Positions 23,859-27,294 of a stretch of DNA of 64,000 nt are shown one piece after another. The stretch's first letter is position 1. Every line of letters starts with the position of its first letter. Position numbers and translations under genes: made by a program. Source of the DNA: Burkholderia stagnalis (GTDB taxonomy: Bacteria > Pseudomonadota > Gammaproteobacteria > Burkholderiales > Burkholderiaceae). The stretch lies in NCBI RefSeq assembly GCF_902830275.1, contig NZ_CADESW010000007.1, positions 248,001 to 312,000 on the forward strand, read 5' to 3'. A model generated the notes under the pieces. It saw nothing but the letters and a program-made list of their open reading frames with translations, ran no database searches and was not told where the DNA came from.

Positions 23859-24599
23859 GTGAACGAGCCGATCCACGCGGCGATGGCCGGGGCGGGCTTC
23901 GCCGCCGACAGCTTGCCCGATGGCGCCGATCTGACGAGCGACCGCATCCTCGCGCGCATCGGCCACGTTACCCGCGCGCTGCGCGACTCGATGCGCGAAC
24001 TCGGTCTCGACAAGCATATCGAGCGCGCGGCGGAAGCCGTGCCCGACGCGCGCGATCGCTTGCGCTACGTCGCGACGATGACCGAGCAGGCGGCCGAACG
24101 CGTGCTGTCCGCGATCGAGCTGGCCAAGCCGGTGCAGGAACGCATGCAGAACGAGGCTGAGGCGCTCGACGCGCGCTGGTCGCAGTGGTATGCGGCGCCG
24201 ATCGAGCGCGCGGAGGTTCGCGAGCTGATGGACGACACGCGCGCGTTCCTGCGCGCGCTGCCGGAAGCGACGACCGCGACCAATGCGCATCTGCTCGAGA
24301 TCATGCTCGCGCAGGACTTCCAGGATCTGACCGGGCAGGTGATCAAGAAGATCACGGACATGGTCTACCTGATCGAGCAGCAGCTGCTCACCGTGCTGGT
24401 CGAGAACATCGCGCCCGAGCGGCGCGAGCAGTTCGCGGCGACCGCGGCCGCGCTCGCGCTGGAGGCCGAGCAGACGATGAGCAGCACCGGCAGCCCCGTC
24501 TCGCTGCTGAACGGCCCGCAGATCAACCCCGAAGGCAAGACCGACGTGGTCCAGGACCAGGCGCAGGTCGACGACCTGCTCGCCAGCCTCGGCTTCTGA
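23859..24599 (+). CDS. cheZ: CheY-P phosphatase CheZ
   Basis: A 246-residue, mostly helical protein. The catalytic segment [17 protein letters not shown] carries Asp156 and Gln160, equal to Asp143/Gln147 of E. coli CheZ. The C-terminus DLLASLGF is the CheY-binding peptide on a flexible tether. GTG start one base after the cheY stop. Last gene of the che operon; a very strong hairpin follows. Confidence 0.96.
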
Positions 24600-24605
24600 C
24601 CGGCG

Positions 24606-24642
24606 CGTGCGGCGCCGCCCGGCAAGCGGGCGGCGCCGCACG
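24606..24642 (+). terminator. Strong hairpin at the end of the che operon
   Basis: A perfect 16-bp stem, CGTGCGGCGCCGCCCG with its complement, around a GCAAG loop, seven bases after the cheZ stop. There is no T tract, so it may stop polymerase only partly or protect the 3' end. Confidence 0.5.
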
Positions 24643-24862
24643 TCCGTCGCACCCGGATTGCGGATCGCGGCGGCCCGTCACGGCGGCCGCCTGCGCGAAC
24701 CCGGACGAACCCCAACGTCGGTCCTTGACACTTTGAAACGCCGCGCAGGCATACTACGCTTCAGCATCAAGACATCTTTTGGTTTGTCTGACATGAACCT
24801 CGGCGATGGCGCGGGCGACTCCGCCGCGCGATCGACTACGAGGCCAGTCCCTGGGGGGGAAC

Positions 24863-25366
24863 GTGAAGCTGAAACGTTTGGGCTGTGCCGTTGCGTGCGC
24901 GACGGTCTCGATGGGCGTGCTGTGGAGCATCCACGCGCACGCTGAATTGGGCGGCGCGCCGATGTCGCCGCCGGCGGACGATCATGCCGCCACCGTGCGC
25001 GCGGTGCAGCGCGCGATGCGCTCGGCCGACGGCGTGTCGGCGAGCGCGGCCACCTATACCGTGCGCGAGGTCACGCTCGGTTCCGGCACCGTGATCCGCG
25101 AATACACCTCCGCCGCGGGCAGCGTGTTCGGGCTCGCGTGGCGCGGCCCGACGATGCCGGATCTCGCGGCGCTGCTCGGCAATTATTTCCCGCAGTACAG
25201 GGCCGGCGTCGACGCGGCCCACGCGGCGCGCGGCTGGCGCGCGCCCGTGTCCGTCGAGACGGGCACCCTCGTGATCCGGACGGGCGGCCACATGGGCTCG
25301 TTCTCCGGCCAGGCCTGGCTGCCGCAGGCGCTGCCTGCCGGCCTGACCGGCAACGACATCCAGTGA
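24863..25366 (+). CDS. DUF2844 domain-containing secreted protein
   Basis: A 167-residue protein. A signal peptide (LGCAVACATVSMGVLWSIHA) ends with AHA before ELGGAP, so the mature protein is probably periplasmic. The conserved part includes YTVREVTLGSGTVIREY and VFGLAWRGPTMPDLAALLG. No catalytic motif is evident. The start is a GTG at 24863 with a G-rich Shine-Dalgarno (GGGGGGGA). It sits 16 bases upstream of the DUF3443 gene, and the two are probably co-transcribed and act together. A loose TTGACA (24725) with CATACT 19 bases on is a possible promoter. Function unknown. Confidence 0.85.
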   Translation: MKLKRLGCAVACATVSMGVLWSIHAHAELGGAPMSPPADDHAATVRAVQRAMRSADGVSASAATYTVREVTLGSGTVIREYTSAAGSVFGLAWRGPTMPDLAALLGNYFPQYRAGVDAAHAARGWRAPVSVETGTLVIRTGGHMGSFSGQAWLPQALPAGLTGNDIQ

Positions 25367-25382
25367 CAGCGGGAGACCGATC

Positions 25383-26603
25383 TTGCGCAATCCTCGTACC
25401 TTCATCCGCTGGTTCGGCGCGCTGAGCTTCGCGGCCGCGACGGCGGTGCTCGTCGCCGCATGCGGCGGCGGCGACGGCAACAACAACGGCGGCGGCTCCA
25501 CGCCGGTCGCGTCGAACACCGCGGTCATCACCGTGGATCGCGGCGTCGCGAACGTCATCAACATTCCGACCGTCAGCGTGACCGTCTGTGCGCCCGGCAC
25601 GTCGAACTGCCAGGTCGTCAACAACGTGCTGGTCGATACCGCGTCGTACGGGCTGCGGCTCGTCAGCGGCGCCGTGACGGGCGTGCTCGGCAGCCTGCCC
25701 GTGTCGACCGTGGGCGGCGCGCCGCTCGCCGAGTGCGGCAAGTTCGTGTCGACCTACACGTGGGGCTCGGTGCGCACCGCCGACCTGAAGATCGGCGGCG
25801 AAACGGCGAGCGCGCTGCCGGTGCAGGTTCTCGGCGACCTCGGCACCACGGGCGTGCCGACCTCGTGCACGAACAACGGCACGGCCGCCAACACGGCGAG
25901 CGCGCTCGGCGCGAACGGCATCCTCGGCATCGGGCCGGCGCCGCTCGACTGCGGCACGACCTGCACGACGACGACGGCCGCCGCGAGCAACAACTACTAC
26001 GCATGCCCGAACGGCAATGCGAGCTGCGCGGTGACGCTCGTGCCGCTGGCGCAGCAGGTCGCCAACCCGGTGCACCGTTTCGCGGTCGACAACAACGGCG
26101 TGATCGTGCAGATGCCGGACATCGCGAGCAGCGGCCAGGGCAGCGCGACCGGGCTGCTGACGTTCGGGATCGGCACGCAGGCCAACAATACGCTGCGCGC
26201 GAGCACCGTGCTGACGTCCACCACGACCGGCGACCTCAACGCGACGTTCCTCGGCGGCGCGGTCACCGCGTTCTTCGATACGGGCTCGAACGCGTACTTC
26301 TTCAACGATTCGACGCAGCGGATCTGCACGCGCAACACCGAGTTCTACTGCCCGGCGTCGACGGTCACCTACACGGCGACGCTCACCGGCCAGAACGGCA
26401 CGCAGAGCCAGGTGTCGATGCCGGTCGCGAATGCGGATTCGGTGTTCTCGAACGCGTCGGCGTTCGCGTTCAACGACATCGCGGGCCCGTTCGGCAACGC
26501 GGGGTGGCTCGATCTCGGCCTCACGCATTTCTACGGCAAGACGATCTACTTCGGGATGGACCGGCGCAGCAGCGGCGGCGCGGCGCCTTACGTCGCGTAT
26601 TGA
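25383..26603 (+). CDS. DUF3443 lipoprotein, pepsin-like aspartic peptidase candidate
   Basis: A 406-residue lipoprotein: lipobox LVAAC with Cys27, then a Gly/Asn linker. Two Asp-Thr motifs lie about 214 residues apart: VDTAS (Asp85) and FDTGS (Asp299). Between them are GILGIG (179-184) and TGLLTFGIGT, and near the end WLDLGLTHFYGK then YFGMD. These recall the order of pepsin landmarks: first DTGS, GILGL, the GxLxFGG strand, second DTG, and the ILG...FL..yY..FD end. The first motif has Ala for Gly. Cysteines are many (CTNN, LDCGTTC, CPNG, ICTRN, FYC), fitting disulfides outside the cytoplasm. Start is TTG with GGGAGA upstream. Peptidase activity is inference; DUF assignment is from memory. Confidence 0.85.
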   Translation: MRNPRTFIRWFGALSFAAATAVLVAACGGGDGNNNGGGSTPVASNTAVITVDRGVANVINIPTVSVTVCAPGTSNCQVVNNVLVDTASYGLRLVSGAVTGVLGSLPVSTVGGAPLAECGKFVSTYTWGSVRTADLKIGGETASALPVQVLGDLGTTGVPTSCTNNGTAANTASALGANGILGIGPAPLDCGTTCTTTTAAASNNYYACPNGNASCAVTLVPLAQQVANPVHRFAVDNNGVIVQMPDIASSGQGSATGLLTFGIGTQANNTLRASTVLTSTTTGDLNATFLGGAVTAFFDTGSNAYFFNDSTQRICTRNTEFYCPASTVTYTATLTGQNGTQSQVSMPVANADSVFSNASAFAFNDIAGPFGNAGWLDLGLTHFYGKTIYFGMDRRSSGGAAPYVAY

Positions 26604-26910
26604 ACGGCATTACGCAGGCGGCATGACGAGGGGGGCGAGCAATCGCCCCCTTTTCTTCTGTCGGCCGGGGCGGCGGGATATTCCGGCAACAAATGCGCGG
26701 GCGATTATCGCGTCGATAACGGCACGCCGCCGTGATTTAAAAAACGAAATGACGCGTTACGTCATTGATTAAATCGATCCGGCTGCAGCCGCGCCGCCCG
26801 GCGTAAAGCGCTGCCCGGGGCTGCCGCAAAAGTGGCTGATTTCCTGAAAATCCCGCCTATACTTCACGCGTTGGTCCGGTGTCGTTCAAATAGAACAGGA
26901 GGTCAATAAA
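26604..26910. other. Intergenic region before the DUF805 gene
   Basis: Holds the DUF3443 terminator (26631-26659) and, at 26858-26863, a TATACT that could be the -10 of the DUF805 gene; no convincing -35 is seen. No other gene is supported. Confidence 0.45.
26631..26659 (+). terminator. Terminator of the DUF2844-DUF3443 unit
   Basis: GGGGGCGA and TCGCCCCC form an 8-bp stem with a four-base loop, followed by TTTTCTTCT, 28 bases after the DUF3443 stop. Confidence 0.85.
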
Positions 26911-27294
26911 ATGAATTTCACGGATGCAATTCAATCGGTCTTCAATCAATACGCACGATTCGACGGCCGCGCGCGTCGCGCGGAATACTGGTATTTCGCG
27001 TTGCTGACGTTCATCGTGTCGATCGCGTGCCAGCTCGTCACGATGGTCGGCCGCAGCGAGAACACGATCGCGCTGCTGCTGGCGATCGCGGCCCTGCTGG
27101 TCTCGCTGGCGCTGATCGTGCCGAGCCTCTCGGTGACGGTGCGCCGCCTGCACGATATCGGCCGCTCCGGCTGGTTCCTGCTGATCGCGCTCATTCCGGT
27201 CGTCGGCGGGATCATCCTGCTCGTCTGGATGTGCTCGCGCGGCAACAACGGCCCGAACCGCTTCGGGCCCGATCCGCTCGCCGCGGCGGCCTGA
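26911..27294 (+). CDS. DUF805 family membrane protein
   Basis: A 127-residue inner-membrane protein with three or four helices (WYFALLTFIVSIACQLV, IALLLAIAALLVSLALIV, WFLLIALIPVVGGIILLVW). The family signature is present: FDGRARRAEYWYF near the N-terminus and VRRLHDIGRSGW in the loop, with NGPNRFGPDP at the end. AGGAGG lies before the ATG. Role of the family is unknown. Confidence 0.93.
   Translation: MNFTDAIQSVFNQYARFDGRARRAEYWYFALLTFIVSIACQLVTMVGRSENTIALLLAIAALLVSLALIVPSLSVTVRRLHDIGRSGWFLLIALIPVVGGIILLVWMCSRGNNGPNRFGPDPLAAAA

What the first reader, a model, noticed from the sequence alone, without database searches (positions are those of the whole stretch)
24863..26603. A secreted pepsin-like protein pair inside the flagellar locus
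The DUF3443 lipoprotein has two Asp-Thr motifs (VDTAS at 84-88, FDTGS at 298-302) with GILGIG and TGLLTFGIGT between, and a WLDLGLTHFYG...YFGMD end, in the order of pepsin landmarks. Single-chain pepsin-type enzymes are rare in bacteria. It is coupled to a DUF2844 secreted protein and sits between cheZ and flhB. First motif has Ala where catalytic pepsins have Gly, so it may be a weak enzyme or a binding protein.
Basis: partly seen in the sequence, partly recalled or inferred. Interest (0 to 1): 0.72.

Follow-up and report, generated by a model that had tools for sequence, protein, structure and literature searches.

The report
Pepsin-like surface lipoprotein and partner
A bacterial gene family of unknown function looks like a surface-anchored relative of the stomach enzyme pepsin, found together with one small secreted partner protein, and in this bacterium its active site seems partly altered.

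Summary
Window 25383-26603 encodes a DUF3443 (PF11925) lipoprotein, preceded by a secreted DUF2844 (PF11005) protein at 24863-25366.

No structure could be predicted because the tool was off. Sequence evidence still favours a two-lobed pepsin-type fold. Both Asp are present in 130 of 130 distinct domains. A profile alignment to pepsin-type enzymes showed all five landmarks in exact register in 13 of 13 template variants, first-ranked in 12, with lobe-swapped alternatives. The score is weak (E about 0.03), some settings lose the register, and no Pfam A1 hit was shown. I call it a probable divergent clan-AA family, not a proven A1 member.

DUF2844 lies just upstream of 119 of 119 DUF3443 copies. 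The flagellar setting looks incidental: hairpins bracket the pair, no sigma-28-like site was found, and other copies lie elsewhere.

The N-lobe motif is DTG in 95 of 130, DTA in the window's lineage, and DTE, DTM, DTK, DSK or DTS in others; the C-lobe D[ST]G never varies. The window protein is probably a weak or inactive peptidase. No paper in the searched library names either family. No activity was tested.

The parts
24863..25366 (+). DUF2844 (PF11005) secreted protein, 167 aa, GTG start; signal peptide judged by eye to end AHA, mature end ELGG
   Evidence: Pfam E 2.1e-45; translation; in 25 aligned members A27, L29 and G30 are invariant and A25 nearly so
25383..26603 (+). DUF3443 (PF11925) lipoprotein, 406 aa, TTG start, 16 bases after the DUF2844 stop
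   Evidence: Pfam E 1.6e-128; translation
25461..25463 (+). Lipobox Cys27 (LVAAC-GGG), predicted lipid anchor
   Evidence: Sequence; strict lipobox in 124 of 130 distinct family members, the other 6 also with Cys-Gly after a hydrophobic run
25635..25637 (+). Asp85, N-lobe catalytic-type Asp in VDTAS
   Evidence: D in 130 of 130; aligned to pepsin Asp32
25641..25643 (+). Ala87, in place of the Gly of DTG
   Evidence: 95 G, 25 A, 5 E, 2 M, 2 K, 1 S of 130
25914..25934 (+). NGILGIG, N-lobe hydrophobic-hydrophobic-Gly (psi-loop) motif
   Evidence: G182 invariant in 69 of 69; aligned to pepsin Gly122
26157..26174 (+). LTFGIG, interlobe strand equivalent to pepsin LLGGID
   Evidence: G262 invariant in 69 of 69; aligned to pepsin Gly168
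26277..26279 (+). Asp299, C-lobe catalytic-type Asp in FDTGS
   Evidence: D in 130 of 130, followed by [ST]G in 130 of 130; aligned to pepsin Asp215
26508..26522 (+). LDLGL, C-lobe hydrophobic-hydrophobic-Gly motif
   Evidence: G379 invariant in 69 of 69; aligned to pepsin Gly302
24597..24650 (+). Strong hairpin after cheZ, possible transcription barrier before the pair
   Evidence: MFE -47.9 kcal/mol, z -5.7; no T run, and not reported by the terminator scan
26628..26653 (+). Intrinsic terminator-like hairpin with T run just after DUF3443
   Evidence: 11-bp stem (that scan found 4 such sites against 1.9 expected); fold z -3.3

Best explanation
DUF3443 is a bilobal protein of the pepsin/retropepsin superfamily (clan AA). 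It is exported through a lipobox and anchored by lipid, probably to the outer membrane. It folds with several disulfides and places Asp85 and Asp299 opposite each other in a substrate cleft. DUF2844 is its dedicated secreted partner, encoded just upstream in the same two-gene unit; I think it binds DUF3443, as an inhibitor, stabiliser or substrate. In most of the family the DTG/DSG dyad is intact and peptide hydrolysis is the likely activity. In the window's lineage the N-lobe Gly is Ala, so this copy is probably a weak or inactive peptidase that still binds peptides, comparable to mammalian pregnancy-associated glycoproteins. Shown: genes, motif conservation, pairing, lipobox, landmark register. 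Inferred: fold, membrane side, partner contact, chemistry.
For: Both Asp in 130 of 130; C-lobe D[ST]G in 130 of 130. HMM-HMM alignment to an 11-sequence A1 profile matches all five landmarks exactly. With alternatives listed, this register appears in 10 of 10 leave-one-out and 3 of 3 realigned templates, first-ranked in 12 of 13; all 23 other listed hits are lobe-swapped at the Asp, Asp85 on Asp215 or Asp299 on Asp32. Of 200 query shuffles none kept more than 3 landmarks. My A1 HMM ranks DUF3443 members first to seventh of 934 proteins, best E 0.0057. Pfam clan-AA models (clan recalled) appear below cut-off: Asp_protease_2 in 10 of 69, gag-asp_proteas in 7, Asp_protease in 1, PE-PGRS_C in 1 at E 0.0016; the four located Asp_protease_2 and PE-PGRS_C hits span a motif Asp. 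Ten conserved cysteine positions. DUF2844 upstream of 119 of 119 copies, not de-duplicated; both families in the same 4 of 369 genomes; partial r 0.49 given cheZ and cheR, 0 of 2000 permutations as high. A change at Gly34 in pregnancy-associated glycoproteins is said to displace the catalytic water while pepstatin binding remains (PMC4890903, passages).
Against: The profile score is weak: E about 0.03, probability 1.7%. 1 of 150 column-shuffled templates scored higher and 30 of 100 block shuffles of the query scored as high, so score alone proves little; it ranked first of 45 families, next best 22.9 against 23.9. In one search the register was lost with context pseudocounts off (0 of 5), fell to 3 of 5 at -mact 0.3, and without alternatives listed was kept in only 4 of 10 leave-one-out runs. 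Of the 23 lobe-swapped hits only 4 also have the hhG Gly exactly in register. A single pepsin gave no register, and a 6-sequence template gave only a lobe-swapped match. PF00026 was not among the 25 of 28 families shown. No pepsin turned up in solved structures. No model could be made. The raw DUF2844-DUF3443 distance correlation (0.91) is hardly above the other gene pairs (0.88-0.93). Activity and partner contact are untested.
Confidence: 0.62

Rival explanations
1. The whole family is non-catalytic: a pepsin-fold binding protein (as TAXI-type or PAG-type proteins are recalled to be), with DUF2844 as its ligand or co-assembly partner.
For: The N-lobe Gly is replaced in 35 of 130, even by Glu, Met or Lys, which should disturb catalysis. 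The states need 6 changes on a quick tree of 69 rows.
Against: Both Asp, the following Thr/Ser in each lobe and the C-lobe Gly are kept in 130 of 130. Pseudo-enzymes often lose an Asp (recalled). DTG is kept in 95 of 130.
Confidence: 0.25
2. Active peptidase throughout, window copy included; Ala is tolerated at position 87 and DUF2844 is the substrate or propeptide-like regulator.
For: Retention of both Asp even in the 25 DTA copies. Strict gene pairing.
Against: A change at the matching Gly34 is reported to inactivate pregnancy-associated glycoproteins (PMC4890903, passages). Glu, Met and Lys occur at the same place in kin.
Confidence: 0.12
3. Not an aspartic-peptidase fold; the D[TS]G motifs are convergent surface loops in a Cys-rich beta protein.
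For: No hit to A1 models or pepsin structures; weak profile score that block shuffles reach; register lost under some settings.
Against: Five landmarks in exact register and lobe-swapped alternatives; both Asp invariant; four aspartic-peptidase Pfam models below threshold.
Confidence: 0.1
4. A flagellum-specific factor (for example a sheath, hook or chemotaxis accessory).
For: 44 of 88 copies in the called loci have cheZ upstream and flhB or flhA downstream within six called genes.
Against: Bracketed by hairpins; no sigma-28-like site in the 263 bases upstream; other copies lie by a BamC-type gene, LysM/M23, earP and others; present in Acidobacteriota records in other settings.
Confidence: 0.04

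Closest known systems
Peptidase family A1 (pepsin; PF00026), including bacterial shewasins
   Same: Single chain, two D[TS]G-type motifs, hhG after each, LxGG-type strand between, landmarks in register
   Different: No PF00026 match shown; 80 residues between hhG and the middle Gly against 46 in pepsin, with four conserved Cys there and an NPV...DNNG motif; lipoprotein. Shewasin D lacks a signal peptide and is mainly cytoplasmic (PMC4814920, passages)
PE-PGRS_C / PecA aspartic peptidases of mycobacteria (PF20729)
   Same: Bacterial, surface-located, DTG/DSG; one DUF3443 member matches the model over its N-lobe at E 0.0016
   Different: Below cut-off (18.3 against 33 bits); [quoted passage not shown] no DUF2844-type partner was seen in those passages
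Retropepsin-like bacterial proteases (PF13650; RloA, RimB)
   Same: Same superfamily motif; the three located Asp_protease_2 hits cover the DUF3443 C-lobe Asp
   Different: Single-lobe relatives (recalled; 90-position model); DUF3443 has two lobes in one chain. RloA carries signal peptides (PMC12239564, passages)
Pregnancy-associated glycoproteins
   Same: A1 relatives with the Gly34 site of DTG altered and both Asp kept, described as inactive but pepstatin-binding (PMC4890903, passages)
   Different: Mammalian, true A1 by sequence (recalled); no partner gene known to me

Membership tests
DUF3443 (PF11925) | Match over curated cut-off along the model | tested here: met
   429 bits against 25, positions 2-367 of 367
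DUF2844 (PF11005) | Match over curated cut-off along the model | tested here: met
   154 bits against 22.4, positions 1-130 of 130
Clan AA aspartic peptidase fold | Asp in D[TS]G plus hhG psi-loop motif, twice in one chain | tested here: inconclusive
   Both Asp 130 of 130 and C-lobe D[ST]G 130 of 130; both hhG Gly invariant in 69 of 69. N-lobe DTG complete only in 95 of 130, not in the window
Clan AA aspartic peptidase fold | Three-dimensional fold with the two Asp in contact | not testable with these tools
   Structure prediction switched off
Peptidase family A1 (PF00026) | Significant sequence match to the A1 model or to pepsin | tested here: not met
   Not among the 25 of 28 families shown for 69 members; window protein matches only DUF3443; no pepsin hit in solved structures
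Peptidase family A1 (PF00026) | Profile alignment with landmarks in register | tested here: inconclusive
   5 of 5 landmarks in 13 of 13 variants, but E about 0.03, settings that lose it, and block shuffles reach the score
Peptidase family A1 (PF00026) | Peptide hydrolysis at acid pH, pepstatin-sensitive | not testable with these tools
   Needs a bench assay
PE-PGRS_C (PF20729) | Match over curated cut-off | tested here: not met
   18.3 bits against 33; 1 of 69 members at E up to 10
Retropepsin-like (PF13650) | Match over curated cut-off | tested here: not met
   10 of 69 members at E up to 10, best E 0.0014 = 19.7 bits against 24.3

The most novel reading that the evidence does not exclude
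An unrecognised family of bacterial surface pepsins with an obligate, co-evolving secreted partner. In one ortholog group, which holds the copies between cheZ and flhB, the N-lobe active-site Gly was lost again and again while both Asp stayed, turning peptidases into peptide-binding pseudo-peptidases. In five loci a canonical DTG copy stands in tandem with a DTE copy, each with its own partner gene, like an enzyme and its inactive twin.
Probability: 0.3. Interest if true: 0.72.

Novelty: new variant of a known kind. Interest (0 to 1): 0.55.

Why it matters
[quoted passage not shown] A second, surface-anchored family, in 143 of 299 sampled genomes of the window's taxonomic family and in some Acidobacteriota records, would bear on where the duplicated two-lobed enzyme arose. 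It would also turn two 'unknown function' families into a testable enzyme-partner pair. The repeated loss of one active-site Gly offers a natural series for asking what a pepsin fold does once catalysis fades.

Tried and rejected
Flagellar function: rejected as the main idea, because the pair is bracketed by hairpins, lacks a sigma-28-like site (best 8 of 16, reached by 173 of 200 shuffles) and sits elsewhere in other copies. The sigma-70-type scan also found no site between cheZ and DUF2844, so the pair's own promoter is not shown.

Viral origin: 21 pattern matches in viral contigs, none a relative.

Identity of DUF2844: no informative Pfam or structure match; the best structure hit was a designed repeat protein at E 0.014, judged chance.

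NCBIfam: no match to either protein. Papers: none for DUF3443 or DUF2844. The search on their Pfam and InterPro accessions gave 11 papers, judged from the listing to be Plasmodium locus names starting with the same letters. None for two recalled B. cenocepacia locus tags. No InterPro, MEROPS or preprint source was on hand, so prior notice there is not excluded.

Neighbours of copies in other settings: 10 proteins scanned gave no common theme.

Profile comparison with a single pepsin or a 6-sequence template gave no full-length register; only the 11-sequence template and its variants did. This weakens the result.

Rows dropped: of 83 non-redundant rows I aligned a chosen part, 69 rows in all with the window and three distant loci; several loci on the minus strand were left out of that alignment. 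135 domains were reduced to 130 distinct ones. Gene calls did not place DUF2844 next to 20 of 88 copies; the six-frame search (score at least 100 bits) replaced that count. The loci are the best 80 of at least 524 relatives, so the sample leans to near kin.

Full report
WHAT IS THERE. Pfam assigns it to DUF3443 (E 1.6e-128) and the gene 16 bases upstream, 24863-25366, to DUF2844 (E 2.1e-45); cheZ and flhB flank them, with a DUF805 gene also lying before flhB. The genome is 8.03 Mb in 149 contigs and holds one DUF3443 match. The nearest named records are Burkholderia, best 78% identity, so I take the window to be a Burkholderia; its species was not determined.

IS IT A PEPSIN-TYPE PROTEIN? (1) Conservation: in 130 distinct domains (135 before removing identical ones) Asp85 and Asp299 are present in all 130. 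The C-lobe motif is DSG in 100 and DTG in 30. In the 69-row alignment Ser88, Gly182, Gly301 and Gly379 are also invariant. (2) Profile comparison: hhalign of the 69-row profile with 11 A1 sequences, four of them bacterial, aligned 296 columns and put Asp85, Gly182, Gly262, Asp299 and Gly379 exactly on pepsin 32, 122, 168, 215 and 302. With alternatives listed, this register appeared in 10 of 10 leave-one-out templates and 3 of 3 other alignments, ranked first in 12 of 13. All 23 other listed hits were lobe-swapped at the Asp, as expected of a duplicated two-lobed fold, though in only 4 of them was the hhG Gly also exactly in register.

LIMITS OF THAT TEST. The score is low (23.9; E 0.03; probability 1.7%). 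It ranked above 44 decoy families made from neighbouring ORF clusters, some of which may not be genes (best decoy 22.9), but 1 of 150 column-shuffled templates beat it. Shuffling single query columns reached the score in 0 of 100, but shuffling ten-column blocks reached it in 30 of 100. In these 200 shuffles at most 3 of 5 landmarks stayed in register (once), and both Asp together in 13. With context pseudocounts off the register was lost; at -mact 0.3, 3 of 5 landmarks remained; without alternatives listed, 4 of 10 leave-one-out runs kept it. A smaller template found only a lobe-swapped match, and a single pepsin found none. Order and spacing therefore carry the evidence, not the score.

INDEPENDENT MODELS. 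Scanning 69 members against Pfam gave, below cut-offs, Asp_protease_2 in 10 (best E 0.0014), gag-asp_proteas in 7 (0.0042), PE-PGRS_C aspartyl peptidase-like in 1 (0.0016) and Asp_protease in 1 (0.18). Unrelated models also appeared at similar levels, such as Rit1_C in 3 (0.0066). PF00026 was not among the 25 of 28 families shown. I located hits by scanning 30 of the 69 singly. Asp_protease_2 covers residues 241-294 of L013, 244-306 of L119 and 241-265 of L091, each spanning the C-lobe Asp (256, 255, 254); PE-PGRS_C covers 39-159 of L014, spanning its N-lobe Asp44 and GILG at 137. An HMM built from my A1 alignment ranked DUF3443 members first to seventh of 934 proteins, best E 0.0057, aligning DTGS and NGILGI with DTGS and dGilGL. 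The rank-sum p-values are not independent tests, since members are related.

EXPORT. A strict lipobox precedes the domain in 124 of 130 members; the other six also show Cys-Gly after a hydrophobic run. Ten cysteine positions are conserved, one of them shared between neighbouring columns, which suits an oxidising compartment. The outer-membrane side is inferred from Gly after the Cys.

THE PARTNER. In the same 369 class genomes, DUF3443 and DUF2844 occur in the same 4, once each. In 114 loci searched in six frames, 119 of 119 DUF3443 copies follow a DUF2844 on the same strand, and 120 of 120 DUF2844 matches are followed by DUF3443; these loci were chosen for DUF3443 and not de-duplicated, so the second figure is partly built in. 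In 29 loci with one of each gene, DUF2844 and DUF3443 distances correlate at 0.91, hardly different from the other gene pairs (0.88-0.93), but at 0.49 after removing cheZ and cheR distances (0 of 2000 permutations as high; shared ancestry may still contribute). Both have median distances nearly three times those of cheZ and cheR. DUF2844 has an almost invariant A-x-L-G at the predicted mature start. Contact, inhibition or cleavage is inference.

SETTING. A -47.9 kcal/mol hairpin without T run follows cheZ and a terminator-like hairpin follows DUF3443. No sigma-28-like site and no sigma-70-type site by the scan lies between cheZ and DUF2844, so the promoter is not located. Of 88 copies in called loci, 44 have cheZ upstream and flhB or flhA downstream within six called genes, 57 have cheZ upstream and 53 flhB or flhA downstream. 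These are mostly Burkholderia, Paraburkholderia and Trinickia; several Caballeronia have cheZ upstream but other genes downstream, and Collimonas, Neisseriaceae and Acidobacteriota records show neither. Copies elsewhere sit beside BamC-type, LysM/M23, earP and other genes. The family is in 143 of 299 sampled genomes of the same taxonomic family, with up to six matches counted in one genome, and in 4 of 369 of the class.

THE ALTERED MOTIF. Position 87 is Gly in 95, Ala in 25, Glu in 5, Met in 2, Lys in 2 and Ser in 1 of 130. On a tree of 69 rows built without the motif columns (quick method; 25 of 66 inner branches open) the states need 6 changes. Ala falls in two separate groups (Burkholderia; Caballeronia and kin), and 18 of the 19 altered rows lie in one supported group of 40 that holds the window, the exception being L119 with Ser. 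The count cannot tell gain from loss; loss of Gly is my reading. In five loci (L054, L060, L061, L064, L118) an upstream DTG copy is followed by a DTE copy. For mammalian pregnancy-associated glycoproteins a change at the matching Gly34 is described as displacing the catalytic water while pepstatin binding remains (PMC4890903, passages; its wording reverses the two residues). Hence my estimate that the window protein is weak or inactive while DTG members are probably active.

LITERATURE. Rawlings and Bateman found pepsin homologues in seven bacterial species, without signal peptides (PMC2761423, passages; 'Burkholderia' and 'DUF' do not occur in its main text). Shewasin D is active, pepstatin-sensitive and mainly cytoplasmic (PMC4814920, passages). 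PecA is a surface aspartic protease of mycobacteria with DTG/DSG (PMC6819658, abstract start and passages). RloA enzymes carry signal peptides and are retropepsin-like (PMC12239564, passages). For PMC11313796 only the outline and abstract were seen. No paper in the library names DUF3443 or DUF2844.

VERDICT. Probable divergent, two-lobed clan-AA lipoprotein family with a dedicated partner; fold likely (about 0.88 by my estimate), catalysis in DTG members plausible (about 0.6), catalysis in the window copy doubtful.

Noticed in passing
L054, L060, L061, L064, L118 (DUF3443 domains at about 3.7-7.2 kb of each locus): Tandem DUF2844-DUF3443 pairs in Trinickia and one Paraburkholderia record: the upstream copy has DTG, the downstream copy DTE.
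   Followed up: partly
   Followed up: no
L138, L141: A second recurrent setting: DUF2844-DUF3443 divergent from a BamC-type lipoprotein gene (Lipoprotein_18 in L138; the L141 gene judged by its similar start).
   Followed up: partly
window 26911-27294: DUF805 membrane-protein gene between the pair and flhB, after the terminator-like site and with the region's only sigma-70-type match just upstream.
   Followed up: no
window 24597-24650: Very stable hairpin after cheZ without a T run (z -5.7).
   Followed up: partly
L107, L114, L120, L121: Acidobacteriota records carry the same gene pair at 42-49% identity in other settings, which suggests ancient origin or transfer.
   Followed up: no
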